A stretch of DNA of 64,000 nt. It comes from Olsenella sp. oral taxon 807. Its GTDB lineage: Bacteria; Actinomycetota; Coriobacteriia; Coriobacteriales; Atopobiaceae. Below are positions 41,967 to 60,463 of this stretch, piece by piece (within the stretch, counting starts at the first letter, position 1; each line of letters opens with the position of its first letter). Made by a program: the position numbers and the translations under genes. The notes under the pieces were generated by a model that worked only from the letters and a program-made list of their open reading frames with translations, was not told the origin of the DNA and did not search any database. The stretch covers positions 620,001 to 684,000 of the forward strand of contig NZ_CP012069.2 of NCBI RefSeq assembly GCF_001189515.2, in the 5' to 3' direction.

Positions 41967-41981
41967 AAGAAGGAGGGAACA

Positions 41982-42806
41982 ATGTCGCCAGTCTCGATAG
42001 TACTTATCGTCATCGTCGCGTTTCTCGCAGGCATGGAAGGCATACTCGACGAATGGCAGTTTCACCAACCCCTGGTAGCGTGCACCCTTATCGGCATCGT
42101 CACAGGGCATCCCGTGGAGGGCATCACCCTCGGCGGCTCCCTGCAGATGATAGCCCTCGGCTGGGCAAACGTCGGCGCCGCCGTTGCCCCTGACGCTGCC
42201 CTCGCGTCGATAGCGTCCTCCATCCTGATGGTCCTCGCGCTCGGGAATGGTGGGGCGTCGTCCGAGGCCACCAAGAACGCCATCACCACTTCCATCGCCC
42301 TTGCCGTTCCACTGTCCGTTGCGGGTCTGTTCCTCACGATGATCTGCCGCACCATCGCCACGGGCATCGCCCATGCCATGGACGGTTGTGCAGAGCGAAA
42401 CGACATGGGCGGCATCGAGCGTTGGCAGATCGCCGCGATCGGCTTGCAGGGTCTGCGCATCGCTATACCAGCTGCCGCTCTCTGCGTCATCCCGTCCGAT
42501 GTCGTCAGCAGCACGCTCAGTAAGATGCCCGAGTGGCTCTCGGGCGGCATGGCGGTCGGCGGTGGCATGGTTGCCGCCGTAGGCTATGCCATGGTCATCA
42601 ACATGATGGCGACAAAGGAAACCTGGCCGTTCTTTGCGCTCGGCTTCGTCTTCGCTGCCCTCAAGGAGCTCACGCTCATCGCCCTCGGCGTCATCGGCGT
42701 TTGCCTCGCCCTCATCTATCTTGGCCTCAAGGGGCTCGCTGCGAGTGGCAGTGGCTCCGGTGGTGGCTCTGGGGATCCGCTGGGCGACGTTTTGGACAGC
42801 TACTAG
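41982..42806 (+). CDS. manY: PTS mannose-family EIIC component
   Basis: Membrane channel subunit. 274 residues, strongly hydrophobic, with the family opening FLAGMEGILDEWQFHQPLVACTL (read in parts) and the GGSLQMIALGWANVGAAVAPDAA block. It starts 15 nt after the EIIAB gene with AAGGAGG upstream. The C-terminus is Gly/Ser-rich. Confidence 0.95.
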   Translation: MSPVSIVLIVIVAFLAGMEGILDEWQFHQPLVACTLIGIVTGHPVEGITLGGSLQMIALGWANVGAAVAPDAALASIASSILMVLALGNGGASSEATKNAITTSIALAVPLSVAGLFLTMICRTIATGIAHAMDGCAERNDMGGIERWQIAAIGLQGLRIAIPAAALCVIPSDVVSSTLSKMPEWLSGGMAVGGGMVAAVGYAMVINMMATKETWPFFALGFVFAALKELTLIALGVIGVCLALIYLGLKGLAASGSGSGGGSGDPLGDVLDSY

Positions 42807-42828
42807 GCCGTAAGGGAGTGTGAATACC

Positions 42829-45299: not shown

Positions 45300-46075
45300 T
45301 CCTCACGAAAAGGCGCACCCCATGTGATCGCACCTCGAGAGGGGTGTCGCAAAGTGCGCTTTTTGGTAACACCACGGTTGCAGAATGCGGTTTTCCGTGA
45401 GACGCAGGTTGCAGAATGCGCTTTTCCGTGAGGAGACGCCGCGTTTGCCCAGGTGAGGAAAAGCGCATTTTACGGAAAAGCGCATTCTGTGCATGGACCC
45501 TCACGGAAAAGCGCATTCTGCGGTCGCGTCGTGACGGAAAAGCGCATTCTGGAGCCCACCGGTTGGGCAGAGTGCGCCTTTCCGTGAGGCCAGACTCCGA
45601 ACCGAGATCTGCGGGCCCCCGCGCAACCCGCCCCGCAGGCTGGCGGGGGGTTGCTCGAGCGCATCTGCCCAGTTGAGCCATTCTCCATAGTGCCCCGCAG
45701 CCTGGCGGGGGGTTGCCCCACACCTCCCGGGCACCGCGACGTCACGGAAAGGCGCAGTCTGCGCGATCTGGGGATCACAGAGTGCACTTTTCCGTGAGAC
45801 GATCAGACCAGAGTGCGCCTTTTGGTGAGAAGCTTGGGCAGAATGCGCTTTTCCGTGAGGACGACACCCCCGGAATGCGCTTTTCCGTGAGGGTGACACT
45901 CCCAGACTGCGGTTTTCCGTGAGCTATCGGCCCAGAGTGCGCTTTTCCGTGAGGTGGAGGTAACAGAGTGCGCTTTTCCGTGAGGGGACGCCACGTTTGC
46001 GCAGGTGAGGAAAAGCGCACTCTACGGAAAGACGCATTCTGCGTACGGACCCTCACGGAAAACCGCATTCTGTGC
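45300..46075. repeat. Array of ~20 copies of a 20-bp repeat (AGAATGCGCTTTTCCGTGAG)
   Basis: About 20 copies, including variants, occur in both orientations. Between 45840 and 45985 five direct copies start at 45840, 45872, 45904, 45934 and 45965, a period of 30-32 bp. A 99-bp block holding three copies is itself duplicated (45421-45519 and 45973-46071). A GC-rich element CCCCGCAG-CTGGCGGGGGGTTGC appears twice at 45631-45654 and 45693-45716. No protein-like frame. It lies between the divergent manA and DUF956 genes. Confidence 0.85.
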
Positions 46076-46525: not shown

Positions 46526-46981
46526 ATGGCCCTGTTTCACATCGGGTCCGACAAGCGTCAGGGCATGCACAGCAGGCGCAAGGATGTGCAACCTCTCAAC
46601 GCATCTGTCGACCTCCAGATTAAATCGACCTCGTTTCTTGGGATTGCCTCATACGGCGTCCTTACGATCGGAAATGCAGGTATTGAGTATCGAAATGATA
46701 CCAACAAGAGTGATTTTATACAGATTCCCTGGGGTGAGGTGGATCACGTCTCTGCGCCCGTTATGTTTGGGGGACGCTATCTGCCGCGCTTCACGGTCAC
46801 GACGAGGCACGATGGTGAATTCTCCTTCTCGACGCGCGATAACAAGAGGACACTGAGGGCGATGAGGCCCTACGTTGGAGAGGACTCCCTCGTACGGGCT
46901 CACAGCCTGACTGCATCCATAGCAAAATACCTAAAAGGACTGCTGGGCAATCGGTTTGGGTCCTCAAGTCGTGGATCGTGA
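46526..46981 (+). CDS. DUF956 family protein (mannose-PTS accessory, ManO-like)
   Basis: 151-residue cytoplasmic protein of the DUF956 family, which is almost always found in mannose-type PTS operons of Gram-positives and is thought to modulate them. Typical text: SVDLQIKSTSFLGIASYGVLTIGNAGIEYRN, IPWGEVDHVSAPVMFGGRYLPRFTV and EFSFSTRDNKRTLRAMRPY (each read in parts). GAGGAGGAG precedes the ATG. Here it sits 2.8 kb from the PTS genes, separated by manA and the repeat array, so it has its own transcription unit. Confidence 0.88.
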   Translation: MALFHIGSDKRQGMHSRRKDVQPLNASVDLQIKSTSFLGIASYGVLTIGNAGIEYRNDTNKSDFIQIPWGEVDHVSAPVMFGGRYLPRFTVTTRHDGEFSFSTRDNKRTLRAMRPYVGEDSLVRAHSLTASIAKYLKGLLGNRFGSSSRGS

Positions 46982-47274: not shown

Positions 47275-48621
47275 GTGGACTTTAGCGAGATCTATCAATC
47301 TAAACTCACTACAGCTGAAAAGGCTGCCGAGGTCGTGAAGAGTGGCGATTGGGTTGACTGTGGTTGGAGTCCGCTCACGCCCGTGGAGTTTGACGCGGCC
47401 CTTGCGAAGCGTCTTGTGGACCTGCATGACGTCAACTTTAGGGGTGGCATACTCCTTCGTGAGCCCGAGCTGTTCAAGATCGAGCATCCCGAGGAGCACA
47501 TGAGCTGGAACAGCTGGCACATGGGCGGCATCGAGCGGCGAGCCTGTCAGCAGGGGTTTGGTTTCTATTCTCCCATCCGTTACTCGGAACTCCCGCGCTA
47601 TTACCGCGACGGCACGGCGAAGGTCAATGTGGCGTGTATGCAGGTGTCCCCGATGGACGAGGCAGGCAATTTTGGCTTTGGCCTGTGCTCGAGCCACCTC
47701 ATGGCCGCGTGTGACGTGGCGGATGTCATCATCGTTGAGGTCAACGAGCGCGTTCCCCGCTGCTTTGGGGGTCCTGAGTCACACATCAGCGTTACCCGTG
47801 TAGACATGATCATCGAGGGCAAGAACCCACCGATGAGCACCCTTGGTAGCGGGGGTGCGCCCACCGAGGTCGACGAGGCTGTCACCAAGCTTGTCGTTCC
47901 GATGATCCCGGATGGCGCGTGCCTGCAGCTTGGTATTGGCTCCATGCCCACCACCATCGGTACGGGCATCGCCCAGAGCGATCTCACCAACCTTGGCGTG
48001 CATACCGAGATGTACGTCGACTCCTTTGTTGACCTCGCCATGGCGGGCAAGATCACGGGGAACCGCAAGGCCATTGACCGTGGCAAGCAGGTCTACTCCT
48101 TTGCCGTGGGCAGCAAAAAGCTCTATGACTACTTGGACAATAACCCCGAGTGTGTGTCGGCTCCGGTCAATTACGTCAACGACGCACACACGATCTCGCA
48201 GCTGGACAACTTCATCTCCATCAACAACGCGGTCGACATCGATCTCTTTGGCCAGGTAAACGCCGAGAGTGCGGGGACGAAGGCAATCAGCGGTGCTGGT
48301 GGCCAGCTCGACTTCGTCCTTGGGGCCTACCTCTCCCATGGAGGGAAGAGCTTCATCTGCATGAGTTCTACCTTCACGAATCGTAAGACCGGCGAGGTGT
48401 TAAGCCGCATCCGCCCAACGCTCGCAAACGGCTCTATCGTTACCGACACGCGTTCCAATACGATGTACGTGGTCACGGAGTATGGCGTGATCAACCTCAA
48501 GGGCCTCGCCGCGTGGCAGCGCGCGGAGGCGCTTATTGGCATCGCACACCCTGACTTCAGGGATGACCTCATCAAGGAGGCCCAAAAGATGCACATCTGG
48601 CGCAGGTCAAACAGGATCTGA
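47275..48621 (+). CDS. Butyryl-CoA:acetate CoA-transferase (But/Cat family)
   Basis: Transfers CoA from butyryl-CoA to acetate, releasing butyrate. Class I CoA-transferase of 448 aa. The start is placed at GTG 47275 (VDFSEIYQ aligns with the family's MDFREIY-type N-terminus); the earlier ATG at 47221 lies within the operator. The text is very close to known But proteins: [50 protein letters not shown] with the likely catalytic E245, and [29 protein letters not shown] lies 11 nt upstream. First gene of the butyrate run. A 4-hydroxybutyrate or propionate CoA-transferase is the alternative. Confidence 0.88.
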
Positions 48622-48692
48622 GCTGATGGTTAGGCAAGGCAGCACGTTAGGTACAGGCAAGGTAGTGGATGACTATCAAGGAGGTTGGCTAC

Positions 48693-49883
48693 ATGAGTGA
48701 GAGAGTCGTTATCGCAAGCGCATGTCGTACCGCCATCGGAAAGTTTGGCGGTTCTCTGTCCACAGTCTCTGCGCGTACGCTCGGCGCGACGGTCATCAAG
48801 GAGGCCTTGAACCGTGCGAAGGTCAAGCCCGAGGACGTCGATCACGTCTACCTGGGCTGTGTCCTTCAGGCGGGGCAGGGCCAGAACGTCGCCCGCCAGG
48901 CATCGCTCGACGCGGGCCTTCCAATCGAGTGCCCTGCCGTCACGATCAACGTCGTCTGCGGCTCCGGTCTCTATTCGGTTAACGCCGCCGCACAGATGAT
49001 CAAGGCCGGCGATGCCGACATCGTCGTTGCAGGCGGTACCGAGAACATGGACATGGCGCCCTTTGCCCTGCAGAAGGGTCGCTACGGCTATCGCATGGGT
49101 TACCCAATGGGCAAGTCCGAGCTCGTAGACACCATGGTGAACGATGGCCTTTGGGACGCCTTCAACAACTACCACATGGGCATTACGGCAGAGAACGTCG
49201 CCGCGCAGTGGGGTCTTAGCCGCGAGCAGCTCGACGAGTTTGCCGCCACATCTCAGAACCGCGCCTGCAAGGCCATAGCCGACGGTGCCTTCAAGGACGA
49301 GATCGTTCCTGTCACCGTCAAGCAGCGCAAGAAGGAGATCGTCTTTGACACGGATGAGGGTCCGCGTGAGGGATCGACGGTTGAGACGCTCGCGAAGCTT
49401 CGTCCCGCCTTCAAGCCCGACGGCATCGTGACCGCCGGTAACTCCTCCGCCATCAACGACGGAGCTGCCGCCCTCGTCGTCATGAGCGAGAAGAAGGCCC
49501 AGGAGCTTGGCATCACGCCGTTGGCGACCATCGTCTCCGGTGAGCTCGCGGGCGTTGACCCCTCGATCATGGGCACCGGTCCTGTCCCCTCGAGCAAGAA
49601 GGCACTTGCCAAGGCAGGCCTCTCCATCAATGACATCGATCTTGTCGAGGCCAACGAGGCCTTTGCTGCCCAGTCGCTCGCCGTTGTCCGTGACCTTGGT
49701 CTCGATCTTGCAAAGACCAATGTCAACGGTGGCGCGATCGCGCTCGGGCATCCCGTGGGTGCCTCGGGTGCCCGCATCCTCACGACCCTGCTCTATGCGA
49801 TGAAGCATCGTGGCGCCCACAAGGGCCTCGCCACGCTCTGCATCGGTGGCGGCATGGGTTGTGCCACCGTCGTCGAGATGTAG
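48693..49883 (+). CDS. thl: Acetyl-CoA acetyltransferase (thiolase)
   Basis: Condenses two acetyl-CoA to acetoacetyl-CoA, the first step to butyryl-CoA. AAGGAGG precedes the ATG at 48693; 396 aa is standard. Catalytic residues: C89 in [12 protein letters not shown], the His in [17 protein letters not shown] and C383 in CIGGGMGCA. It lies 71 nt downstream of the CoA-transferase and 9 nt upstream of the crotonase gene, in the order of the pathway. Confidence 0.95.
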
Positions 49884-49892
49884 GGAGGGACC

Positions 49893-50678
49893 GTGAGCTT
49901 CGTTAGCTGTGAGGTACAAGACAGGGTGGCGGTTCTGACCATAGACCGTCCCAAGGCCCTGAACGCCCTCAACCCCGAGGTCCTCAACGATCTGAGGCTT
50001 GCCTTCGAGGGTATCGACCAAGACGTCGTGCGTTGTGTCATCCTGACGGGGGCCGGTGACAAGAGCTTCGTGGCTGGCGCCGACATCGCCTCGATGTCCA
50101 CGATGACCAAGGCGGAGGGCGAGGCCTTCGGGAGGCTGGGCAATGACGTCTTTTTGATGGTCGAGAACTTTCCGCTGCCGGTGATAGCCGCTGTGAACGG
50201 ATTTGCGCTCGGTGGCGGCAACGAGTTGGCCATGAGCTGCGATATACGCCTTGCCTCCGAGAACGCTCTCTTCGGCCAGCCTGAGGTTGGTCTTGGCATT
50301 ACTCCGGGCTTCGGCGGTACGCAGCGGCTCGCCCGTGTGGTGGGCGTCGGGATGGCCAAGCAGCTCGTCTACTCCGCCACGAACATCAAGGCAAGCGAGG
50401 CGCTGCGCATTGGCCTCGTGAATGCCGTCTATGCCCCTGACCAGCTCATGGATGCGGCACGCAAGCTCGCAGGCAAGATAGCCTCGAATGCGCCCATTGC
50501 TGTTCGCAACTGCAAGCGGGCCATCAACGAGGGCATAGAGCTTCCCATCGCGGAGGCGGTCCAGGTGGAGGAGAGGCTCTTTGGCGCCTGCTTCGAGACC
50601 CACGATCAGGTGGAGGGGATGTCCTGCTTCCTGAGTCGTGAGAAACCAAAGCCCAAGGCGGTGTTTACGAACAACTAG
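49893..50678 (+). CDS. crt: 3-Hydroxybutyryl-CoA dehydratase (crotonase)
   Basis: Dehydrates 3-hydroxybutyryl-CoA to crotonyl-CoA. The 261-residue crotonase-fold protein starts at GTG 49893 after GGGAGGG. It has the oxyanion-hole loops SFVAGADIASM and NGFALGGGNELAMSCD and the two acid/base glutamates (GGGNE and GQPEVGLGITPGFGG). A hairpin lies between it and hbd. Position in the butyrate run makes short-chain specificity likely. Confidence 0.93.
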   Translation: MSFVSCEVQDRVAVLTIDRPKALNALNPEVLNDLRLAFEGIDQDVVRCVILTGAGDKSFVAGADIASMSTMTKAEGEAFGRLGNDVFLMVENFPLPVIAAVNGFALGGGNELAMSCDIRLASENALFGQPEVGLGITPGFGGTQRLARVVGVGMAKQLVYSATNIKASEALRIGLVNAVYAPDQLMDAARKLAGKIASNAPIAVRNCKRAINEGIELPIAEAVQVEERLFGACFETHDQVEGMSCFLSREKPKPKAVFTNN

Positions 50679-50701
50679 CTACTCTACGCCAAGAGACATG
50701 A

Positions 50702-50728
50702 CCCGACCGACAGGTGTTGTCGGCCGGG
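50702..50728 (+). other. Intercistronic hairpin crt-hbd
   Basis: CCCG-A-CCGACA pairs with TGTCGG-C-CGGG around GGTGT; there is no U-run. It may act as an RNA processing or stability element between crt and hbd. Confidence 0.45.
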
Positions 50729-50753
50729 CCATATGAAAAGAAGGAGGTTTGAC

Positions 50754-51623
50754 ATGAAGGTGGGAGTCATTGGCGCGGGCACGATGGGTCAAGGCATCGC
50801 CAAGGCATTCGCTCAGTCAGGCTGGGAGGTCGCGCTCTGCGACATCAAGCAGGAGTGGGCCGATGGTGGCAAGGCAAAGATTGCAAAGGGCTATGAGCGC
50901 CTCGTGAGCAAGGGCAAGCTCGATCAAGCTGAGGTCGACAAGCGCTTGGCCGCCATCACCACAGGCTTGAAGGAGGCACTCGCCTCAAGTTGTGACCTCA
51001 TTGTCGAGGCAGCCTTCGAGGACATGAAGGTCAAGAAGGAGACCTTTGCGGAGCTCGATAAGATCTGCAAGGAGAGTTGCATCTTTGCGTCCAATACCTC
51101 GAGCCTCTCTATCACAGAGATCGGAGCAGGCCTCTCTCGTCCGCTCGTGGGTATGCACTTTTTCAATCCGGCAGATCGCATGAAGCTCATCGAGGTTATC
51201 GCTGGTGTCAATACGCCTGTCGAGACCACCGAGAAGATCGTCTCCATCGCCAAGGAGATCGGCAAGACGCCGGTGCAGGTCAACGAGGCTGCGGGCTTTG
51301 TCGTGAACCGCATTCTCATCCCCATGATCAACGAGGCCGCCTTCATTAAGATGGAGGGCGTCTCAGACATCGCAGGCATTGACACCGCCATGAAGCTCGG
51401 TGCCAATCATCCTATGGGTCCGCTCGAGCTCGGCGATTTCATCGGGTTGGACATCTGCCTTGCCATCATGGACGTTCTCTACACGGAGACCTGCGACTCT
51501 AAGTATCGTGCCTGCCCGCTCATCCGTAAGATGGTTCGCGGCGGCAACCTTGGCGCCAAGAGCGGTCGTGGCTTCTACGTCTACAACACCGATCGCACGA
51601 AGACTCCGGTCGACCAGCTCTAG
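50754..51623 (+). CDS. hbd: 3-Hydroxybutyryl-CoA dehydrogenase
   Basis: NAD(P)-dependent reduction of acetoacetyl-CoA to (S)-3-hydroxybutyryl-CoA. ATG 50754 has AAGGAGG upstream and yields 289 aa, the usual length. The Rossmann loop is GVIGAGTMGQGIA; the active-site text is LVGMHFFNPADRMKLIEVI with the catalytic His and the following Glu; the C-terminal dimerisation domain has GANHPMGPLELGDFIGLD. Last gene of the first block; a hairpin follows at 51708. Confidence 0.95.
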   Translation: MKVGVIGAGTMGQGIAKAFAQSGWEVALCDIKQEWADGGKAKIAKGYERLVSKGKLDQAEVDKRLAAITTGLKEALASSCDLIVEAAFEDMKVKKETFAELDKICKESCIFASNTSSLSITEIGAGLSRPLVGMHFFNPADRMKLIEVIAGVNTPVETTEKIVSIAKEIGKTPVQVNEAAGFVVNRILIPMINEAAFIKMEGVSDIAGIDTAMKLGANHPMGPLELGDFIGLDICLAIMDVLYTETCDSKYRACPLIRKMVRGGNLGAKSGRGFYVYNTDRTKTPVDQL

Positions 51624-51707
51624 CATGAGGGGTAACCCCACAGGGTATGCATGCAGTGCCTCGAGATGCTTCACGTAGCTCAAACCATAGACATTCGTAG
51701 CTCATTA

Positions 51708-51740
51708 TGCGGGAGTCGTGTTTGCCATGCGGCTCCCGCA
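51708..51740 (+). terminator. Hairpin after hbd
   Basis: TGCGGGAGTCG (51708-51718) pairs with CGGCTCCCGCA (51730-51740), an 11-bp stem with one wobble, in the 245-nt gap between hbd and etfB-1. No U-run, so termination may be partial. Promoter for etfB-1 not identified. Confidence 0.45.
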
Positions 51741-51868
51741 TGCTCTTCCGAATAGGAGGCCACCGATGTGCTTAGATCGCGCGGTTGTCTGGGCGACGAG
51801 CGGGGTGGGTCTGTGGCGTGGAGCGTCTCCTAACTACTCAACTCAAACTTAGGAGTCTGTGAATTATT

Positions 51869-52669
51869 ATGAAGCTACTTGTCTGTGTGAAACAGGTTCC
51901 AGACACGACAGAGATTCGAATTGACCCAGAGACGAATCGACTGATTCGCGATGGTGTCCCCAGCATCGTTAACCCCTTTGACGGGTACGCGCTGGAGATG
52001 GCCGCCCGCATCAAGGACCAGAGGGATGACGTTCAGATTATCGTCATGTCCATGGGACCGATGCAGGCCAAGGAGGCTCTCAAGAGCTGCCTGGCCGTTG
52101 GCGGTGACAAGGCCTATTTGATCTCGGGACGCAGGTTTGGAGGGTCGGATACGCTGGCGACCAGCTATATCCTCTTCTGTGCGATCAAGAAGCTCGAGGA
52201 GATCGAAGGCAAGTTTGACGTGATCTTCTGTGGTAAGCAGGCCATCGACGGCGATACCGCCCAGGTCGGACCGGAGCTTGCGGAATACCTGGGGGTGCCG
52301 CAGGTCACCTATGGCCTGACCGCCGAGATTGTCGACAACGAGATTCAGGTGACGCGTGAGACCGAGGATGGTCAGGAGATCCTTGGTGTATCGTTCCCCT
52401 GCCTCGTCACCGCTACCAAGCCCAGCTTCGATCCCCGCCTTCCGACGATCAAGCAAAAGCTCGCTGCCAGGAAGAAGGAGATTACCGTTTTCTCAGAGAA
52501 CGACTTTGATGTCGATCTCTCGCGCTGCGGCCTTAACGGCTCGCCGACCAAGGTCAAGAAGACCTTTGTTCCCCCCGTTAAGCAAGGTGGCATACGGATT
52601 CAGGCTGAGACTGCTGGCGAGGCGGCCCAGAAGCTCGCTGAGCATCTTGACGCGGATAACGTTCTCTAG
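51869..52669 (+). CDS. etfB: Electron transfer flavoprotein beta subunit (first pair)
   Basis: Beta subunit of an ETF heterodimer, 266 aa. It starts KLLVCVKQVPDTTEIRIDPE and contains the EtfB core (NPFDGYALEMAARIKDQ, SMGPMQAKEALKSCLAVGGD, FCGKQAIDGDTAQVGPELAEYLG, LPTIKQKLAARKK). Proximity to the FAD lactate dehydrogenase gene suggests this pair serves lactate oxidation, possibly as a flavin-based confurcating complex like LctBCD of Acetobacterium; this is inference. GTGAATTATT precedes the ATG and no strong SD is visible. Confidence 0.92.
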   Translation: MKLLVCVKQVPDTTEIRIDPETNRLIRDGVPSIVNPFDGYALEMAARIKDQRDDVQIIVMSMGPMQAKEALKSCLAVGGDKAYLISGRRFGGSDTLATSYILFCAIKKLEEIEGKFDVIFCGKQAIDGDTAQVGPELAEYLGVPQVTYGLTAEIVDNEIQVTRETEDGQEILGVSFPCLVTATKPSFDPRLPTIKQKLAARKKEITVFSENDFDVDLSRCGLNGSPTKVKKTFVPPVKQGGIRIQAETAGEAAQKLAEHLDADNVL

Positions 52670-52750
52670 GAGCTGAGGCGCGCACAGCGTGTCCTCGCAC
52701 TCTCGTTGTCATAGGCAAGTGGCTGCTTATATACATGAGGAGAATATAAC

Positions 52751-53758
52751 ATGGAACCTAAGTCAAAAGATCTATGGGTGTTCATCGAGACCTTCGCCGA
52801 TGGCTCTGCCCAGAACGTGGGCCTTGAGCTGCTGAATCCCGGCCGCGACCTTGTCAACAAGCAGGGTGGCAAGCTTGTGGCGCTGGTCATCGGACACAAT
52901 ACCGACGCAGCGGTCGTCTCTGCCCAGGAGCATGGTGCCGACCAGGTCATCGTTGTTGACGGCCCGGAATACGAGCACTACACCACCGATGCGTACGTCA
53001 ACGCGCTTGCGGCCATGCTTACCAAGTATGCGCCGACCACGATGCTCATCGGTGCCACCAACAATGGTCGCGATGTCGGGCCACGTCTGTCCTCTCGCCT
53101 GCAGACGGGTCTGACCGCCGACTGCACGCAGCTCGCGATCGACGAGGAATCCGGCAACGTGGCATGGACGCGTCCGGCCTTTGGCGGCAACCTTATGGCG
53201 AGGATCCTCTGCCCGAACCATCGTCCCCAGCTCGGTACCGTGCGTCCCGGCGTTTTCAAGGCACTGCCGCCGGAGGCGGGGCGTAGCTGCGAGGTCGTCC
53301 GTGAGGACTTTCACGTTGCCCCAGAGGACATTCACGTCCGGCTCATCAAGGAGATCCAGGAGGGCGCCTCGGAGCTCGTTGACCTCATCGGTGCCGAAAT
53401 CATCGTCTCAGGTGGTCGTGGCGTTGGCGGGGCAGAAGGCTTCGAGCCGCTGAAGGGACTGGCGGACGCATTGGGTGCGACGGTGGGTTGCTCGCGAGCC
53501 GCCGTCGATGCGGGGTGGATCTCGCATTCCCACCAGGTTGGCCAGACCGGCAAGACTGTCGGTCCAAAGCTCTACATTGCTTGCGGCATCTCTGGTGCCA
53601 TCCAGCATGTGGCTGGCATGAGCAGCTCTGATGTTATTGTTGCCATCAATAAGGATCCCGAGGCACCGATCTTTGACATTGCAGACTATGGCATAGTCGG
53701 TGACCTCTTTGAGGTGGTGCCCGCCCTGACGGAGGCAATCAAGAAGGTCAAGGGCTAA
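52751..53758 (+). CDS. etfA: Electron transfer flavoprotein alpha subunit (first pair)
   Basis: 335 aa. The C-terminal FAD domain is clear: [59 protein letters not shown] and [23 protein letters not shown]. It starts directly with the EtfA fold and has no N-terminal ferredoxin-like domain, unlike Acetobacterium LctC. GAGGAGA precedes the ATG. The 81-nt gap from etfB-1 is longer than usual. Confidence 0.93.
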
Positions 53759-54066
53759 ATCCTGTGTACCAAAGGGTCGTTGGGCCTTGTGTCCAGCGGC
53801 CCCGTACGCGAGGGTCGGAACCTTGCTAGAGTACGTCGGAGCGCGGGGTCTAGCCTAAAGTAGCGGGATTTCGTCAGGGCGTGGAATGGCGTGGCGCTTA
53901 GGCGGATGTGGCTCCATCGCCATTTAGCTGCCCATAGATACCGTCTGTGGAGTCGAACGCCGCCTAAGGTAGCCATCTGGTAAACTTTATGTGGAAATGT
54001 CGAGACGGTAGAGCAGCTGTCGTGACGTGTCTTGGTATTGCTTGCATCGAATCGAAGGGAGTTGGA
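53759..54066. other. Gap between etfA-1 and lactate dehydrogenase
   Basis: 308 bp without a credible gene. CTTAGGCGG (53897-53905) and CCGCCTAAG (53960-53968) form a 9-bp perfect inverted repeat. An AT-rich GGTAAACTTTATG stretch near 53978-53990 might hold a -10 box. The next gene's site AAGGGAG is at about 54056. Confidence 0.4.
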
Positions 54067-55512
54067 ATGGCTACGTACACGTATAACAAGGTAACACCGG
54101 AGGTCCTTGAGCAAATCAAGGCAGCCGCCAACGGGCATGTGCTCGTCGGCGACCAGATCAACGAGGACTTTAGTCATGATGAGATGCGCATCTACGGCGA
54201 GGCTATGCCGGAGGTGCTCGTCGAGCCCACGACGACCGAGGAGGTCGCCGCGGTTATGAAGGTCTGCAACGAAAACAAGATAGCGGTGACGCCGTCCGGC
54301 GCTCGCACCGCACTGACGGGCGGTCCCGTGGCCCAGTACGGTGGAGTCATGATCTCCACCACAAAGATGAACAAGATCCTCGGTTATGACGAGGAGAACC
54401 TGGTCGTCACGATCCAGCCGGGCGTCCTCCTTAAGGACTTGGCCGATGACGCCCTTAAGCGTGGACTCATGTATCCGCCCGATCCAGGTGAGAAGCTCGC
54501 GACCGTGGGTGGCAACGTCTCCACCAACGCGGGTGGCATGCGCGCCGTCAAGTATGGTACGACGAGGGACTACGTGAAGGAGATAACGGTCGTCCTTCCG
54601 ACCGGAGAGGTCGTGAAGGAGGGTGCGACGGTCTCGAAGACGAGCTCGGGGTACAGCCTTTTGCACCTGCTCATAGGGTCGGAGGGTACGCTGGGCATCA
54701 TCACGGAGATGACCCTGAAGATCATCGTCGCGCCCAAGATGACGATGTCCATCATCGTCCCGTACGAGACGCTCGAAGGCGCCATCGCCACGGTTCCCAA
54801 GCTGTTTGCGGCTAACCTCGACCCACAGGCGCTCGAGTTCATGGAGAAGGACGTCGTTATCGACACGGAGCAGCTGCTCTCCAAGGAGGTGTACCCCAAG
54901 CAGCTCAATGGCGTCGACATCAACGCATACGTCCTGGCCACCTTCGACGGCAGTGACGAGGACCAGCTGATGAACACCATCGAGGAGGCGTCCAACATAG
55001 CCCTGGAGGCAGGCGCGGTTGACGTGCTGGTTGCCGATACGCCGCAGCAGCTCAGGGACGCGTGGGCCATCAGGAGCTCCCTCTTGGAGTCCATCGAGGG
55101 GAATACCAAGCTCTTGGACGAGTGCGACGTCGTTGTTCCCGTGACGAAGATCCCCGAGTTCCTCACCTACGCTAAGTCGCTGGGAGAGGGTCACTCCTAC
55201 ACGGTCAAGGACTTTGGCCATGCTGGTGACGGCAACCTGCACATCTACCTGTGCAGCAACGACGATGATGCCGAGGCCTTCATGAAGGAGTCCGACGAGT
55301 TCATGAAGAAGGCCTACGCGAAGGCGGTCGAGCTCGGTGGCCTCATCTCGGGCGAGCACGGCATCGGATCCGGCAAGATATCCTATCTGAAGGACTTCGT
55401 CGGTCCGGTCAACATGAGGCTGATGCGTGGTATCAAGAAGGTCTTTGACCCCAACATGATCCTGAATCCTGGTAAGGTCTGCTTCATCCCCGAGGAGGAC
55501 GAGGACGAGTAA
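54067..55512 (+). CDS. FAD-linked lactate dehydrogenase (GlcD/LctD-like)
   Basis: Oxidises lactate (or glycolate) to pyruvate with FAD. From ATG 54067 it is 481 aa. The N-terminal FAD_binding_4 domain has TPSGARTALTGGPVAQYGG, VTIQPGVLLKDLADDAL, NVSTNAGGMRAVKYGTTRDY and SSGYSLLHLLIGSEGTLGII (in parts). The C-terminal domain has KDFGHAGDGNLHIYLCSND and SGEHGIGSGKISYLKDF, the metal and substrate histidines. No membrane segment or Fe-S domain, so ETF-1 is the expected electron acceptor. With the permease at 58.9 kb it defines a lactate-use pathway. D-lactate is the likelier isomer for this family. Confidence 0.9.
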   Translation: MATYTYNKVTPEVLEQIKAAANGHVLVGDQINEDFSHDEMRIYGEAMPEVLVEPTTTEEVAAVMKVCNENKIAVTPSGARTALTGGPVAQYGGVMISTTKMNKILGYDEENLVVTIQPGVLLKDLADDALKRGLMYPPDPGEKLATVGGNVSTNAGGMRAVKYGTTRDYVKEITVVLPTGEVVKEGATVSKTSSGYSLLHLLIGSEGTLGIITEMTLKIIVAPKMTMSIIVPYETLEGAIATVPKLFAANLDPQALEFMEKDVVIDTEQLLSKEVYPKQLNGVDINAYVLATFDGSDEDQLMNTIEEASNIALEAGAVDVLVADTPQQLRDAWAIRSSLLESIEGNTKLLDECDVVVPVTKIPEFLTYAKSLGEGHSYTVKDFGHAGDGNLHIYLCSNDDDAEAFMKESDEFMKKAYAKAVELGGLISGEHGIGSGKISYLKDFVGPVNMRLMRGIKKVFDPNMILNPGKVCFIPEEDEDE

Positions 55513-55593
55513 GGCAGCCCCCGAAGACAGAGAGCGGTCCAGTTGCACGGCACAGGAGTCGTGTGAAGACCGTACGACAAGCAAGGAGAGAGC

Positions 55594-56733
55594 ATGGCAT
55601 ATTTCATTTCTGACGAGGCAAAGGACCTGTTGGGCGACCTCAAGAAGTTCTGTGATGCCGAGGTCGTGGAGCAGGCTAAGGAATACGACAAGTCGGGCGA
55701 GTGGCCAAAGGACATTTACGACAAGGCTATTGAGCAGGGCTACACTACGCTTGAGGTTCCCGAGGAGTTTGGTGGCCCCGGCCTGAGTCGTGTTGACGTG
55801 GCTGCGCTGATCGAGCAGATGGCATGGGCAGACTCTGGCTTTGCCACGACCATATCTGCCAGCGGGCTTGGTACCAAGCCTGTCTTGATCGCGGGCAACG
55901 AGGCGCAGAAGAAGCACGTCTGTGACCTCCTGCTCGAGGGCGGCTTTGGTGCGTTCTGCCTGACCGAGCCGGGCGCGGGGTCTGACCCTGGTGCCGGCAC
56001 GACCACGGCCGTCAAGGATGGGGATGGCTATGTCTTGAACGGCAGGAAGTGCTTCATCACCAACGGCGCCGTCGCCAGCTTCTACTGTGTCACCGCCCTC
56101 ACTGACAAGGAAAAGGGTGCCAAGGGAATGTCCATCTTCTTGGTTGACAGGGACACCCCCGGTCTCTCTGTCGGTCATGAGGAGGACAAGATGGGCATTC
56201 GCCTGTCCAACACGACTGACGTCGTTCTTGAGGACGTCCATGTGCCGGCCGAGAACCTCCTTGGTGGCGAGGGACAGGGCTTCAAGATCTCGATGCAGAC
56301 GCTCGATCAGGCGCGTGCATGGATGGGCGTCGTCTCGACGGGCCTTGCGCAGCGCGCCATGGACGAGGCCATCGCCTACACCAAGGAGCGCAAGCAGTTC
56401 GGTCGTCCCGTCCTGAAGTTCCAGGCCATGCAGTTCAAGATTGCCGACATGGCCATGAAGATCGAGGCTGGCCGTCAGCTCTGCGCCTATGCGCTGAACC
56501 TCATGGACCAGGGCAAGGCTCACAGTCGTGAGGCCGCTATGGCGAAGTGCTTCGCATCCGACGCGGCCATGTGGTGCACGACCGAGGCCGTCCAGATGCT
56601 CGGTGGCTATGGCTACAGCCGCGAGTATCCGGTCGAGAAGCTGATGCGTGACGCAAAGATCTTCCAGATTTTCGAGGGTACCAACGAGGTACAGAGGATT
56701 GTAACTGCCAACAACACCATCGGCAGGTTCTAA
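55594..56733 (+). CDS. bcd: Butyryl-CoA dehydrogenase (acyl-CoA dehydrogenase)
   Basis: Reduces crotonyl-CoA to butyryl-CoA, in clostridia coupled through ETF to ferredoxin reduction. 379 aa, standard for the family; AAGGAGAG precedes the ATG. Landmarks: AFCLTEPGAGSDPGAGTTTA, FITNGAVASFYCVTAL, KMGIRLSNTTDVVLEDVHVPAENLL (in parts), AYTKERKQFGRPVLKFQAMQ, and the C-terminal FEGTNEVQRIVTANN with the catalytic glutamate. It is separated from the following etf pair by an intrinsic terminator. Confidence 0.94.
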   Translation: MAYFISDEAKDLLGDLKKFCDAEVVEQAKEYDKSGEWPKDIYDKAIEQGYTTLEVPEEFGGPGLSRVDVAALIEQMAWADSGFATTISASGLGTKPVLIAGNEAQKKHVCDLLLEGGFGAFCLTEPGAGSDPGAGTTTAVKDGDGYVLNGRKCFITNGAVASFYCVTALTDKEKGAKGMSIFLVDRDTPGLSVGHEEDKMGIRLSNTTDVVLEDVHVPAENLLGGEGQGFKISMQTLDQARAWMGVVSTGLAQRAMDEAIAYTKERKQFGRPVLKFQAMQFKIADMAMKIEAGRQLCAYALNLMDQGKAHSREAAMAKCFASDAAMWCTTEAVQMLGGYGYSREYPVEKLMRDAKIFQIFEGTNEVQRIVTANNTIGRF

Positions 56734-56755
56734 TTCAAACCGCAGGGCGTAGCCG

Positions 56756-56793
56756 CCGGCAGCCAGAAGAAGGGTTCTGGCTGCCGGTTTTCT
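56756..56793 (+). terminator. Intrinsic terminator/attenuator between bcd and etfB-2
   Basis: CCGGCAGCCAGAA (56756-56768) pairs perfectly over 13 bp with TTCTGGCTGCCGG (56775-56787), loop GAAGGG, followed by TTTTCT. The U-run ends 3 nt before the GGGAGG site of etfB-2, leaving no room for a separate promoter, so the ETF pair must be read by read-through. Confidence 0.9.
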
Positions 56794-56808
56794 AACGGGA
56801 GGTTGAGT

Positions 56809-57600
56809 TTGAACATTTTAGTATGCATCAAGCAGGTTCCAGATGATTCCGTTGAGGTGGGCTTTGGGAAGGATGGCAAGCCTGCGATCGAGGGAATCAC
56901 ACCGGTCGTCAACGCCTTCGACACCTATGCATTGGAGATGGCCACCCGTCTCAAAGAGTCTCTGGGTGACGGATCGGAGATCACTGTCCTTTGCGTTGGA
57001 CCTGACTCGGCAAAGAACTCTCTGAAGAACTGCCTGGCTGTTGGTGGAGACTATGCCTATCTCGTGAGCGAGGAGGGCGTGAGCGACACCGACAACCTTG
57101 GCATTGCGGAACTGATTCGGGGTGCCATCGAGAAGCTGCGCGGCGAGAGGGGCGACTTCGACCTCGTGTTTGCGGGTAAGGAGGCGACCGATGTCGCCCA
57201 GGGTCAGACGGGGATATACCTAGCGGCGAAGCTGAACGTGGCCGTGGCGACGGACGCCATCGACATCACGCGGGAGGGTGACACCGTCCAGGTGAAGCAT
57301 GAGACCGACGAGGGCTACCGTCTTGTGGAGCTACCTCTCCCAGCGCTCGTCACAGTGAGCAAACCGAGCTATGACCCTCGCTATCCGACGATCCGCAACA
57401 AGATGGCCGCCCGCAAGAAGCCCATCGGCGAGCTGAGCGGTGCGGAACTCGCACAGGGAGCCGACATCGCGGCGCGACTCTCGACTGTGAGGGAGTATGA
57501 GCCGCCAAAGCGTGCCGCTGGCGTGAAGATCCAAGAAGAGACCGTCGAGGAATCCACGGCGAAGGCCATTCAGATGATGGTCGACGCTCGGGTGCTGTAG
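56809..57600 (+). CDS. etfB: Electron transfer flavoprotein beta subunit (second pair)
   Basis: 263-aa EtfB, expected partner of Bcd. The start is placed at TTG 56809, 6 nt after GGGAGG (56797-56802); TTG 56803 touches the site. Text: NILVCIKQVPDDSVEVGF, VNAFDTYALEMATRLKES, CVGPDSAKNSLKNCLAVGGD, FAGKEATDVAQGQTGIYLAAKL and YPTIRNKMAARKKPI. It is clearly diverged from the first EtfB, so the two pairs are not a recent duplication. The rare start codon and the upstream terminator suggest deliberately reduced expression relative to bcd. Confidence 0.92.
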   Translation: MNILVCIKQVPDDSVEVGFGKDGKPAIEGITPVVNAFDTYALEMATRLKESLGDGSEITVLCVGPDSAKNSLKNCLAVGGDYAYLVSEEGVSDTDNLGIAELIRGAIEKLRGERGDFDLVFAGKEATDVAQGQTGIYLAAKLNVAVATDAIDITREGDTVQVKHETDEGYRLVELPLPALVTVSKPSYDPRYPTIRNKMAARKKPIGELSGAELAQGADIAARLSTVREYEPPKRAAGVKIQEETVEESTAKAIQMMVDARVL

Positions 57601-57610
57601 GGGGTATGCC

Positions 57611-58603
57611 ATGAAGAGGGAAGACACGAAAGACGTGCTTGTGTACATCGAGGTTGCAGACGGCAGCCCCGTGAAGGCGAGCCTCGAGTCTCTGACGCCG
57701 GCCCGCAGCATCGCAGACGCGAGGGGCGAGGGCGTCGTCGCCGTCGTCTTGGGAAGTGGCAGGGAGGCTGCGGCCAATGAGGTCGCCATGGCTGGTGCCG
57801 ATAGGGTCATCTATGTTGACTCGAGCGAGCTGCAGGACTTTAACTTGGATGCCTATGCTGATGTACTCGGGCAGATAGTGGAGGCAGAGAGGCCCGCCGT
57901 CGTCTTGATCGGTGGGACGACCGACGGCAAGGACCTGGCCCCCATGCTTGCCGCTAGGTTCCAGTCAGCCTCCGCATCTGACGTGATCGCTGTCGCGGCA
58001 GAGGGCAAGGATGTTACTTACACCATGACCGAGTACAGCGGTACGGTCTTGAGTGACGTGAAGATAGACGCTGCTCCCGAGATAGCGACGATTCGCTCTG
58101 GTGCCTTTAAGAAACTGGATGAGCCTGCGCAGGGCAAGGTCGTGAGCGGTAGCTACGCCGTCTCGGATGGCGCCGTGCGCGCGAAGGTCATCGACACGGT
58201 ACAGGAGATCACCGAATCCGTGAACCTCGAGGACGCCGAGGTCATCGTCTCGGGTGGCCGCGGGCTGGGGAGCAAGGAGGGCTTTGCCCTGGTCGAGGAA
58301 CTCGCAGGGGTGCTTGGTGGCGAGGTGGGTGCCACCAGGCCCGCCATCGAGGATGGTTGGATCGCAAAGAACCATCAGGTCGGGCAGTCTGGGAAGTGCG
58401 TCGCGCCCAAGCTGTACATCGCAGCAGGTGTCTCCGGTGCCACCCAGCACCTCTCTGGCATTACGGGAGCAGACTACATCGTCGCGATCAACAGGGACGA
58501 GGACGCGCCCATCTTTTCCGTCGCCAATGTCGGCATCATCGGGGATGCTCTGAAGGTGCTCCCACTTATGATCGAGGAAGTAAAGAAAATCAAGGAAAGC
58601 TAG
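57611..58603 (+). CDS. etfA: Electron transfer flavoprotein alpha subunit (second pair)
   Basis: 330 aa; its C-terminal FAD-binding part reads [59 protein letters not shown] and [22 protein letters not shown]. No ferredoxin extension. It follows etfB-2 by 10 nt (GGGGG before the ATG). The context (bcd upstream) suggests Bcd-Etf electron bifurcation from NADH to crotonyl-CoA and ferredoxin; this is inference. Confidence 0.92.
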
Positions 58604-58642
58604 TCACCGGACGTATGGGAGTCTGACGACTACGGGGTGATC

Positions 58643-58680
58643 GGCTATGGCTTCTCGGAAACTTGCGGGAAGCCATAGCC
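58643..58680 (+). other. 12-bp perfect hairpin after etfA-2
   Basis: GGCTATGGCTTC (58643-58654) and GAAGCCATAGCC (58669-58680) form a perfect 12-bp stem with a 14-nt loop; no U-run follows. It lies 40 nt after etfA-2 and 212 nt before the permease gene, possibly a terminator or RNA-stability element. The rest of the gap to 58891 shows no gene. Confidence 0.5.
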
Positions 58681-58891
58681 TCAGGATGGGCCGCGAGAGG
58701 ATGCTGTGCCCTCATGGGATCTATGTTTATGGGTATGGGCGTATGGGGATCGCCTGTGCCTTTCCATTATCTTGCGGGTCAGAAAAACTATGGGAGCATG
58801 GCGATGACGGGGAGGGCATGGACGTCTCGTTGGCCTGTGTACCTGACGTAGTCTCAGTCCAATACATGACCAAGACTAAGGAGGGATACAC

Positions 58892-60463
58892 GTGGATACA
58901 ACTATGTTAGTTAATCTCTTGCTCGGCCTGGTCCCGATCATCTGGTTGGTGATTGCGCTCACAGGTCTGAAGATGCCGGGATATAAGGCGTGCGGCATTG
59001 CAATAGCCTTTGCCGCCGTCGTTGCAATTCCCTACAAGGGTATGGCTCCCTTCAACTGTGGCACGGCGATACTCGAGGGGGTGCTGAGCGCACTGTGGCC
59101 CATCATCCTCGTTATCATTGCTGCACTCTTTACCTACAACCTGGTTCTCGAGACAGGTGCAATGGACCGGATCAAGGCGATGTTGTCCAGCATCTCCAGT
59201 GACAAGCGCATCCTGGCTATCATCATCGGGTGGAGCTTTGGGTGCTTCATGGAGGGCATGGCCGGTTTCGGTACAGCAGTGGCCATTCCCGCGAGCATTC
59301 TCATCGCTCTTGGCTTCGAGCCACTCCCGACCCTCGTGGGACTGCTGATCGTGAACTCGACGCCGACAGCCTTCGGTTCTGTCGGCGTGCCGACCACGAC
59401 ATTGGCTCCATTAATAGGCGTGGATTCAGTACTGCTCTCGGCCAATACGGCGTTGATTGAGGCCCTGCTCATGTTTCTCTCGCCCTTCTTCATGGTCTTC
59501 GTGATAGGCAAGGGCTTCAAGGCCTTCAAGGGCGTCCTTCCCATCGCGCTCGTCTCGTCTTTGGCCTTCACGGTACCGAACTTTCTGGTCGCGACCTTTA
59601 TCGGTCCGGAGCTTCCAGACATCATCGGCTCGGGCTGCTCTATGGCCATAACCATCCCCCTTGCCATCGCGATGAGGAACAAGCCAGTGCCAGATGAGTA
59701 CCGCATCGCAGCGGATAAGCAGCAAAAGCTCAGCATCAGCGTTGCCGAGGGCGTCAAGGCCTGGAGTCCCTTCATTTTGATCTTCATCCTGCTGCTTGGC
59801 ACCTCCAAGCTGGTCCCGCCCGTTAACGCGCCACTTTCTGCCATCAAGTCCTCGGTTCTCATCTATACAGGGCCAACGGGAAAGCCGACTAACTTCTCTT
59901 GGATAAACACCCCAGGCGTGTGGATCATCATCGCGGCTATCATCGGCGGACTTATCCAGGGGGCAAGGCCCCAGAAGATCGCGTCGGTGTTTGGGCATAC
60001 GGTGGCCTCGAACGTCAAGACGATCGTCACCATCTGCTCCGTGCTGGCAACGGCAAAGATCATGGTGCACAGCGGTATGACAAAAGATGTTGCTGAAGCG
60101 TTGGTTGCTATCACGGGAGGGATTTTCCCCCTGTTCTCGCCGCTCGTTGGTGTCCTTGGTGCCTTCGTTACGGGGTCCGGAACGAACACGGGTGTTCTGT
60201 TTGGTCCGTTGCAGCAGGAGACGGCGAGTCGAATCGGAGTTGTCCCGCAATGGTTGTGCGCCGCTAACGCGATGGGTGCTGGCATCGGCAAGATGGTTGC
60301 TCCCTCCAATGTCGCGCTTGCCTGTGCGGCTGCGGGGATAGCGGGTCAGGAGAGCAAGGTCATTCGCGCTGTCTTCAAGTACACCTTGATCTACACGGTC
60401 ATCGGAGGCATCATCTGCTTTGCCTTGGCGCATGCAGTGACGTTGGCGTCTGTCGTGCCGTAA
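58892..60463 (+). CDS. lctP: L-lactate permease (LctP/LldP family)
   Basis: Membrane importer of lactate (or glycolate) with protons. 523 residues, very hydrophobic, 12 or more predicted spans. Family text: FGCFMEGMAGFGTAVAIPASILIALGF, VNSTPTAFGSVGVPTTTLAPLIGV (in parts) and the C-terminal VTGSGTNTGVLFGPLQ and MGAGIGKMVAPSNVALACAAAGI. GTG 58892 follows AAGGAGGG. Last gene of the lactate/butyrate region, followed by a terminator-like hairpin. Confidence 0.94.
   Translation: MDTTMLVNLLLGLVPIIWLVIALTGLKMPGYKACGIAIAFAAVVAIPYKGMAPFNCGTAILEGVLSALWPIILVIIAALFTYNLVLETGAMDRIKAMLSSISSDKRILAIIIGWSFGCFMEGMAGFGTAVAIPASILIALGFEPLPTLVGLLIVNSTPTAFGSVGVPTTTLAPLIGVDSVLLSANTALIEALLMFLSPFFMVFVIGKGFKAFKGVLPIALVSSLAFTVPNFLVATFIGPELPDIIGSGCSMAITIPLAIAMRNKPVPDEYRIAADKQQKLSISVAEGVKAWSPFILIFILLLGTSKLVPPVNAPLSAIKSSVLIYTGPTGKPTNFSWINTPGVWIIIAAIIGGLIQGARPQKIASVFGHTVASNVKTIVTICSVLATAKIMVHSGMTKDVAEALVAITGGIFPLFSPLVGVLGAFVTGSGTNTGVLFGPLQQETASRIGVVPQWLCAANAMGAGIGKMVAPSNVALACAAAGIAGQESKVIRAVFKYTLIYTVIGGIICFALAHAVTLASVVP

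What the first reader, a model, noticed from the sequence alone, without database searches (positions are those of the whole stretch)
47275..60463. Contiguous lactate-to-butyrate gene set in a Coriobacteriia-like genome
CoA-transferase, thiolase, crotonase, 3-hydroxybutyryl-CoA dehydrogenase, ETF, FAD lactate dehydrogenase, butyryl-CoA dehydrogenase, a second ETF and lactate permease lie in one direction over 13 kb. Seen directly: gene order and motifs. Known: these families form the clostridial butyrate route and the LctBCD/LctP lactate route. Inference: the organism converts lactate to butyrate. This is better known from Firmicutes, so the locus may have been transferred or be an under-recognised trait of Atopobiaceae.
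Basis: partly seen in the sequence, partly recalled or inferred. Interest (0 to 1): 0.75.

Follow-up and report, generated by a model that had tools for sequence, protein, structure and literature searches.

The report
Butyrate operon rewired to lactate
A bacterium appears to have swapped the last reducing step of its butyrate-making operon for a block of genes related to those of distant bacteria, which would let lactate drive butyrate formation directly.

Summary
The 11-gene set is real. But (47275-48621) passes the butyryl-CoA:acetate CoA-transferase equivalog cut-off. The locus has two histories that meet right after hbd (about 51.6 kb).

But-thl-crt-hbd is shared with family relatives (but over cut-off in 7 of 140 genomes). 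In the three other genomes readable past hbd it continues into an ordinary bcd-etfB-etfA.

In the window that tail is replaced by a bifurcating-type ETF (ETF1; EtfA 83-85% to Pseudoramibacter-type genomes), then lctD-bcd-etfB-etfA-lctP of a Bacillota "lct" kind (Bcd 90-92%, LctD 78-83% to the [Clostridium] aminophilum group).

ETF2 lacks all four bifurcation signatures that ETF1 keeps. Bcd has Phe and an aliphatic residue where Fusobacterium nucleatum's lactate-coupled Bcd does, and is the only acyl-CoA dehydrogenase found. No RnfC passed its cut-off.

Best reading: LctD passes lactate electrons through ETF2 to Bcd directly, and through ETF1 plus ferredoxin to NADH for Hbd. Predicted: 3 lactate + 1 acetate -> 2 butyrate + 3 CO2 + 2 H2.

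New variant of a known kind; nothing was assayed.

The parts
47275..48621 (+). but: butyryl-CoA:acetate CoA-transferase (GTG start; the ORF opens at 47221)
   Evidence: TIGR03948 776.6 bits, cut-off 674.8; groups with same-genus genomes G203 and G291
48669..49883 (+). thl: acetyl-CoA acetyltransferase
   Evidence: TIGR01930 499 bits over cut-off; 84% to G203 and G291
49893..50678 (+). crt: short-chain enoyl-CoA hydratase (crotonase)
   Evidence: NF004475 355.5 bits, below its cut-off of 394; 82-84% to G291, G203 and G399
50733..51623 (+). hbd: 3-hydroxybutyryl-CoA dehydrogenase; last gene shared with family relatives
   Evidence: NF004474 380.8 bits, below its cut-off of 408; long DNA match to relatives ends at 51622-51634
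51624..51868 (.). junction: relatives continue here with bcd-etfB-etfA; the window continues with Bacillota-like genes
   Evidence: long blastn matches to G203, G291 and G399 end here; synteny
51869..52669 (+). etfB1: bifurcating-type ETF beta subunit
   Evidence: keeps Gly128 (aligned with Gly123 of Acidaminococcus fermentans), RDGV, GLNGSPTKV; 80-85% to Pseudoramibacter-type genomes
52751..53758 (+). etfA1: bifurcating-type ETF alpha subunit, without the N-terminal extension seen in LctC
   Evidence: keeps RPAFGG; 83-85% to Pseudoramibacter-type genomes; tree 100/100
54067..55512 (+). lctD: FAD-dependent D-lactate dehydrogenase (481 aa; the ORF opens at 53989)
   Evidence: best PDB match A. 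woodii LctD 440 bits; 78-83% to the C. aminophilum group (tree)
55594..56733 (+). bcd: lactate-module (LctG-type) butyryl-CoA dehydrogenase; the only acyl-CoA dehydrogenase found in the genome
   Evidence: 90-92% to the C. aminophilum group; Phe360 and Val247; one PF00441 match genome-wide
56803..57600 (+). etfB2: canonical-type ETF beta subunit
   Evidence: Val in place of the bifurcation Gly; RXGV Arg and SPT motif lost; 68-71% to the C. aminophilum group
57611..58603 (+). etfA2: canonical-type ETF alpha subunit
   Evidence: MTEYSG in place of RPXFGG; tree 99/97 with the C. aminophilum group
58892..60463 (+). lctP: lactate permease
   Evidence: TIGR00795 410.6 bits, cut-off 341; 71-72% to two Lachnospiraceae loci with the same gene order

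Best explanation
This is a butyrate operon rewired to lactate. A family-type but-thl-crt-hbd core lost its NADH-driven, electron-bifurcating Bcd-EtfAB (inferred from relatives) and gained a Bacillota-like block. LctP imports lactate and LctD oxidises D-lactate. A lactate racemase gene elsewhere in the genome would let L-lactate enter. LctD's electrons have two exits. (a) Through the canonical-type ETF2 straight to Bcd, reducing crotonyl-CoA without NADH or ferredoxin, as shown by others for Fusobacterium nucleatum. (b) Through the bifurcating-type ETF1, which with reduced ferredoxin from pyruvate:ferredoxin oxidoreductase makes the NADH that Hbd needs. But then exchanges butyryl-CoA with acetate. 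Excess ferredoxin leaves as hydrogen through a monomeric [FeFe] hydrogenase. Shown here: gene identities, order, signature residues, tree placement, genome-wide counts. Inferred: which ETF serves which enzyme, the direction of flow, the direction of transfer, and that the organism makes butyrate.
For: Family matches. Break after hbd and a different tail in three relatives. Bcd, LctD and both EtfA nested in Bacillota, thl in the family clade. Signature residues: ETF2 lacks, ETF1 keeps, all four bifurcation signatures; Bcd has Phe and an aliphatic residue as in 33 of 33 lct-locus rows read, against Tyr and Gln in 9 rows of butyrate-operon type. One acyl-CoA dehydrogenase, four ETF proteins, one PFOR, LarA over its equivalog cut-off, monomeric [FeFe] hydrogenase, no RnfC over cut-off (the same query passed it in 4 of 14 control genomes). 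Bookkeeping closes with both ETFs and fails without ETF1 confurcation. Biochemistry of the F. nucleatum Ldh-ETF-Bcd set: PMC12630350 (outline, sections 2 and 14, passages).
Against: No activity or product was measured. ETF1 could serve both LctD and Bcd alone, as proposed for 'Ca. Pseudoramibacter fermentans' (PMC6974650), which makes ETF2 stoichiometrically dispensable ('no ETF2' case). Four lct ETF2 relatives (L117, L124, L126, L142) have Ala at the Gly position, so the steric argument alone is weak; the lost Arg is the stronger sign. The Phe/aliphatic pair of Bcd is not confined to lct loci: two further acyl-CoA dehydrogenases of Eubacterium barkeri (L228 at 7949 and 6290) have Phe with Ile or Leu. 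ETF1's closest relatives stand apart from lctD, so its partners are inferred. Other NADH:ferredoxin enzymes (Nfn and the like) and the Pta-Ack pair were not searched, so the balance rests on an incomplete inventory. The block's base composition matches the host, so the transfer is old or came through a high-GC carrier.
Confidence: 0.62

Rival explanations
1. ETF1 alone does the work, confurcating with LctD and bifurcating with Bcd as proposed for Pseudoramibacter; ETF2 is a minor or redundant passenger of the block.
For: EtfA1 is 83-85% identical to the stand-alone ETF of two Pseudoramibacter genomes and a related Eubacteriaceae bin, whose lactate loci show lctD-bcd with no ETF2; the authors of PMC6974650 propose both roles for that ETF in 'Ca. 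P. fermentans' (passages and section 12). Bookkeeping closes without ETF2.
Against: ETF2 is intact here and follows bcd in 29 of the 34 Bacillota loci listed (absent in L118, L120, L145 and L191; L130 ends at bcd). By identity Bcd and LctD are closest to the ETF2-bearing C. aminophilum group rather than to Pseudoramibacter (in the LctD tree the fork joining the three is open).
Confidence: 0.25
2. One reading: an A. woodii-type LctBCD confurcating complex plus a clostridial bifurcating Bcd-EtfAB.
For: Gene order EtfB-EtfA-LctD, then Bcd-EtfB-EtfA; LctD's best solved relative is A. woodii LctD; EtfB1 scores higher with LctB (210.8 bits) than with C. difficile Bcd-type EtfB (201.5).
Against: EtfB1 and EtfA1 score higher with CarDE, Thermotoga and A. 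fermentans ETFs than with LctBC, and EtfA1 lacks the LctC extension; LctD and EtfA1 do not group with the LctBCD-like sets in L100 and L136; ETF2 has lost the bifurcation residues.
Confidence: 0.08
3. The junction is an assembly or contamination artefact that joins two organisms' DNA.
For: The two sides have different closest relatives.
Against: Single 3.21 Mb contig, 99.43% complete, 0.96% contamination. GC3 of the block (0.71-0.81) matches the core (0.74-0.78), while eight Bacillota loci measured are 0.385-0.523 GC overall; DNA identity to the C. aminophilum group is about 66-75%.
Confidence: 0.03
4. The enzymes act mainly on another acid: But on propionate or 4-hydroxybutyrate, or the acyl-CoA dehydrogenase on acrylyl-CoA.
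For: But's best solved relatives are labelled 4-hydroxybutyrate CoA-transferases; acryloyl-CoA reductase is the best NCBIfam match of Bcd, below its cut-off.
Against: The butyrate equivalog cut-off is passed by 100 bits; thl-crt-hbd lie beside but; none of the proteins between 47275 and 60463 matched a lactoyl-CoA dehydratase family.
Confidence: 0.06

Closest known systems
lct cluster of Fusobacterium nucleatum (FN1531-1536; PMC12630350)
   Same: D-lactate dehydrogenase, Bcd and canonical ETF encoded together; Bcd with Phe and an aliphatic residue at the Tyr361/Gln248 positions; Bcd precedes EtfBA, as that paper states for canonical clusters
   Different: F. nucleatum has LrgAB instead of LctP and keeps a separate bifurcating-type Bcd-ETF; here a bifurcating-type ETF sits in the cluster and no second Bcd was found
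lct clusters of Anaerobutyricum, Anaerostipes and Coprococcus catus (PMC8914356, PMC12630350; passages)
   Same: lactate dehydrogenase, ETF and an alternative Bcd (LctG) in one cluster, with lactate permease
   Different: the one listed gene by gene (A. soehngenii) has one ETF pair and its genome also keeps a central Bcd; here two pairs of opposite type flank lctD-bcd and are joined to but-thl-crt-hbd
lctD-bcd-etfBA(-lctP) of the [Clostridium] aminophilum group (L114-L116, L142, L143)
   Same: closest relatives: Bcd 90-92%, LctD 78-83%, EtfB2 68-71%, EtfA2 62-68%
   Different: no ETF1 beside it; in the three of these genomes looked at, a bcd-etfBA set beside thl and hbd lies elsewhere (L229-L231)
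Pseudoramibacter etfBA and lctD-ACD loci (PMC6974650; L118, L145, L191, L222-L224)
   Same: EtfA1 83-85%; LctD 73-79% and Bcd 76-81%
   Different: ETF stands apart from lctD and no ETF2 follows bcd; the paper reports Rnf for 'Ca. P. fermentans'

Membership tests
butyryl-CoA:acetate CoA-transferase (But, TIGR03948) | score above the curated equivalog cut-off | tested here: met
   776.6 against 674.8 bits
butyryl-CoA:acetate CoA-transferase (But, TIGR03948) | activity with butyryl-CoA and acetate | not testable with these tools
   needs enzyme assay
lct lactate-butyrate module with canonical ETF | lctD, bcd, etfB and etfA contiguous with bcd before etfBA | tested here: met
   same order in 27 of 34 Bacillota loci
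lct lactate-butyrate module with canonical ETF | EtfB without the Gly of bifurcating ETFs | tested here: met
   Val in ETF2; none of 29 lct-locus EtfB2 rows has Gly
lct lactate-butyrate module with canonical ETF | Bcd with Phe and an aliphatic residue in place of Tyr and Gln (seen in F. nucleatum) | tested here: met
   Phe360, Val247; not exclusive, two Eubacterium barkeri rows outside lct loci share it
lct lactate-butyrate module with canonical ETF | lactate-driven crotonyl-CoA reduction | not testable with these tools
   needs purified proteins
group 2 (bifurcating) ETF, for ETF1 | Gly, RXGV, GXXSPTXV in the small subunit and RPXFGG in the large one | tested here: met
   motifs from PMC10734219 and PMC12630350 (passages)
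group 2 (bifurcating) ETF, for ETF2 | same four signatures | tested here: not met
   all four lost
A. woodii LctBCD | LctC-type EtfA with N-terminal extension | tested here: not met
   EtfA1 335 aa against LctC 418 aa, aligned from residue 76
A. woodii LctBCD | LctD and ETF grouping with LctBCD | tested here: inconclusive
   L100 and L136 second sets, LctBCD-like by gene order and similarity, branch apart from the window's LctD and EtfA1; A. woodii itself was not in the trees
clostridial butyrate operon (thl-crt-hbd-bcd-etfBA) | bifurcating-type Bcd-EtfBA after hbd | tested here: not met
   three relatives have it (Tyr/Gln Bcd, bifurcating-type ETF); the window has the lct type

The most novel reading that the evidence does not exclude
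One lactate dehydrogenase and one butyryl-CoA dehydrogenase are served by two ETFs of opposite chemistry in a single operon, a redox switch between direct transfer and confurcation. The paper listings show no report of such a locus.
Probability: 0.35. Interest if true: 0.75.

Novelty: new variant of a known kind. Interest (0 to 1): 0.58.

Why it matters
The lactate-to-butyrate clusters in the papers seen belong to Bacillota and Fusobacterium. Here a relative seems to have become a lactate consumer by swapping one electron-transfer step. It offers a natural test of how canonical and bifurcating ETFs share a lactate dehydrogenase and a Bcd, a question that PMC8914356 and PMC12630350 raise for the Lachnospiraceae clusters.

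Tried and rejected
LctBCD reading of ETF1+LctD: set aside on tree placement and the missing LctC extension. Source of LctD inside the class: rejected; the class's good matches are 46-55% identical and lie in other families, and of the 18 such loci examined only one (L100) has an ETF beside LctD. Recent transfer judged by base composition: not visible, GC3 is host-like. Remnants of the native bcd-etfBA: blastn against three relatives showed only short pieces (up to 527 nt) inside the replacing genes and none in the gaps. Promoter and terminator scan: counts within about one standard deviation of shuffles, uninformative. Rfam: two tRNAs only, far away. Mobile-element genes: none among the 46 window proteins listed (two of them, But-region and manA-type, partly repeat earlier scans); only two lie downstream of lctP, and the flanks outside the window were not scanned. 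Literature on butyrate-making Atopobiaceae or Coriobacteriia: the listings of searches showed no paper describing this locus; only open-licence papers are held. Rows dropped before counts: L146 Bcd (split), L140 EtfA (short), others outside the length limits. Rows that do not fit: Bcd of L228 at 7949 (Phe/Ile) and 6290 (Phe/Leu), L227 at 14223 (Gly/Val); L134's extra ETF pair lacks the bifurcation signatures although found with ETF1 as query. Near-identical Flavonifractor-type rows were left out of the trees. The But and Thl trees hold duplicate rows of some genomes, the Hbd tree one duplicate of the window's own gene, and the LctD tree one very long unrelated row (L166); trees are quick ones without bootstrap.


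Full report
WHAT IS THERE. The window is bases 620001-684000 of a single-contig genome of 3,213,585 bases, 99.43% complete. On the + strand from 47275 to 60463 lie but, thl, crt, hbd, etfB, etfA, a GlcD-type FAD dehydrogenase, an acyl-CoA dehydrogenase, a second etfB and etfA, and lctP. But passes the butyryl-CoA:acetate CoA-transferase equivalog cut-off (776.6 against 674.8 bits). Its best solved relatives are labelled 4-hydroxybutyrate CoA-transferases, at about 274 bits. The FAD dehydrogenase matches Acetobacterium woodii LctD best, at 440 bits against 243 for the next. LctP passes TIGR00795.

TWO HISTORIES IN ONE LOCUS. Besides the window's genome, three of the seven could be read through a whole operon: G291 (L028), G203 (L030), G399 (L048). 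All three run but-thl-crt-hbd-bcd-etfB-etfA. The but contigs of the remaining three (L029, L049, L050) end inside the operon. Thl, Crt and Hbd of the three are 81-87% identical to the window's and But 72-76%. The next genes are different: their Bcd is 39-40% identical to the window's and their ETF 43-47% to ETF1. Long DNA matches to these three stop at 51622-51634, right after hbd. The thiolase tree puts the window in one clade with five other family genomes (8 rows, two genomes twice; 100). The But tree puts it with G203 and G291 (100), but it also places one Bacillota But (L230, a [Clostridium] aminophilum genome) among the family rows, so the but gene itself may have crossed phyla at some time. 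Hbd from a Lachnospiraceae bin (L229) is likewise 84% identical and falls among the family rows.

WHERE THE REST COMES FROM. A scan of named genomes with the window's Bcd returned 78 loci; the close ones are all Bacillota: Lachnospiraceae KH1T2 92%, RUG14892 91%, [Clostridium] aminophilum 90%, then Pseudoramibacter, Eubacterium, Pseudoflavonifractor and others (records of the window's own genome or very near ones may be left out). I laid 34 of these loci against the window's proteins. Of the 34, 27 show lctD-bcd-etfB2-etfA2 in this order. Three (L114, L143, L136) have lctP next, as here. L118, L120, L145 and L191 have no ETF2 after bcd, and L130 ends there. With L114 the identities are LctD 82, Bcd 91, EtfB2 71, EtfA2 68, LctP 72%. 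In the Bcd tree the window sits inside Bacillota with the aminophilum group (100/99), as does EtfA2 (99/97). LctD sits in a 9-row set with the aminophilum and Pseudoramibacter groups (100, quick tree). ETF1 has another nearest kin: among 15 of these 34 genomes searched with EtfA1, the best were Pseudoramibacter alactolyticus, P. porci and a related Eubacteriaceae bin at 83-85% (tree 100/100). There etfBA stands apart from lctD, in the first of them near a prephenate dehydrogenase gene, as PMC6974650 reports for 'Ca. P. fermentans' (passages and section 12). None of the 34 loci shows an ETF1-type pair just upstream of lctD, although a few are cut short there; L136 (Clostridium sp. HBUAS56010) has a second etfBA-lctD set downstream of lctP. 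Within the class, LctD's other good matches are 46-55% identical and lie in other families (396-genome sample). EtfA2's best match outside this genome among the 140 family genomes is 191 bits (36% identity) against 678.6, with short pieces up to 45%. GC3 of the block is host-like, so the transfer is not very recent or came by way of a high-GC carrier; direction is inferred from nesting.

SIGNATURE RESIDUES. PMC12630350 (outline, sections 2 and 14, passages) states that bifurcating EtfB have an invariant Gly (Gly123 in A. fermentans) and canonical ones tend to have a bulkier residue, and that F. nucleatum's lactate-coupled Bcd has Phe and Ile where C. difficile Bcd has Tyr361 and Gln248. PMC10734219 (passages) gives RXGV and GXXSPTXV (small subunit) and RPXFGG with the key Arg (large subunit) for group 2. 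In one search ETF1 keeps all of these and ETF2 none (Val for Gly; IEGI; ADIAARLST; MTEYSG). None of 29 lct-locus EtfB2 rows has the Gly (four have Ala), and none of 28 EtfA2 rows has the Arg. All 15 comparison rows of bifurcating-type sets keep Gly, SPT and both Arg; L134's extra pair does not. The window's Bcd has Phe360 and Val247, like 33 of 33 lct-locus rows (Phe with Val or Ile); 9 rows from other Bcd genes, mostly in butyrate operons, have Tyr and Gln. Three rows differ: two acyl-CoA dehydrogenases of Eubacterium barkeri outside lct loci have Phe with Ile or Leu, so the pair is not exclusive, and one has Gly and Val. The placement of the signature columns against A. fermentans can be read directly, and that of Bcd against C. 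difficile.

GENOME-WIDE PARTS LIST. One acyl-CoA dehydrogenase (PF00441), four ETF proteins, all in this cluster, one PFOR, one nickel-dependent lactate racemase over its equivalog cut-off at about 2.51 Mb, one [FeFe] hydrogenase of the monomeric group B type over its cut-off, no RnfC over cut-off (best 20.8 bits against 245.95; the same query passed in 4 of 14 control genomes). Nfn-type enzymes and Pta-Ack were not searched.

HOW IT LIKELY WORKS. Lactate enters by LctP and is oxidised by LctD. In F. nucleatum a canonical ETF carries both electrons from Ldh to Bcd (shown there, PMC12630350). The same set is here as LctD, ETF2 and Bcd. That direct route yields no NADH, yet Hbd needs it. ETF1 with LctD and reduced ferredoxin could supply it by confurcation, the role proposed for the ETF of 'Ca. 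Pseudoramibacter fermentans' (PMC6974650). A small flux calculation gives, for the listed reactions, 3 lactate + 1 acetate -> 2 butyrate + 3 CO2 + 2 H2. It is infeasible without ETF1 or if ETF1 does not confurcate with LctD, and equally good without ETF2. Thus stoichiometry alone does not demand ETF2; its value would be a direct, ferredoxin-free path. [quoted passage not shown]

VERDICT. The new points are that the locus is a composite with a sharp break after hbd, that the native bifurcating-type Bcd-EtfAB has apparently been replaced, and that one LctD and one Bcd stand between two ETFs of opposite type. Everything about electron flow is inference until assayed.

Noticed in passing
window 45383-46070: Array of 14 copies (up to 3 mismatches; mean 0 in 100 shuffles) of GAATGCGCTTTTCCGTGAG in both orientations, often about 31 nt apart, between manA and the DUF956 gene just upstream of but. 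It looks REP-like; no cas search was made.
   Followed up: partly
L030 5935-8223 (-) and 4606-5916 (-): In relative G203 the native bcd-etfBA is followed by a 763-aa fusion of acyl-CoA dehydrogenase, ETF-alpha and rubredoxin, and by an ODP/flavodoxin (flavodiiron-like) protein, which may be a butyryl-CoA:oxygen oxidoreductase pair. The window genome shows no second acyl-CoA dehydrogenase, so it seems to lack the fusion.
   Followed up: partly
L136 4339 to about 17900: Clostridium sp. HBUAS56010 carries thl-crt-hbd, lctD-bcd-etfBA2-lctP and a second etfBA-lctD set in one stretch: both kinds of lactate module together.
   Followed up: partly
G086, G104, G128, G241, G308 (family f1): These family genomes have an ETF-alpha relative (36-39%) within a few kb of a distant LctD-like FAD oxidase match, perhaps another ETF-linked 2-hydroxy acid system.
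   Followed up: no
window 46526-46981: A DUF956 gene lies just upstream of but here and in relative G203 (63% identical); the window has a mannose-type PTS operon at 40893-43746.
   Followed up: no
window 16149-16760: Vsr mismatch endonuclease gene (78.9 bits).
   Followed up: no
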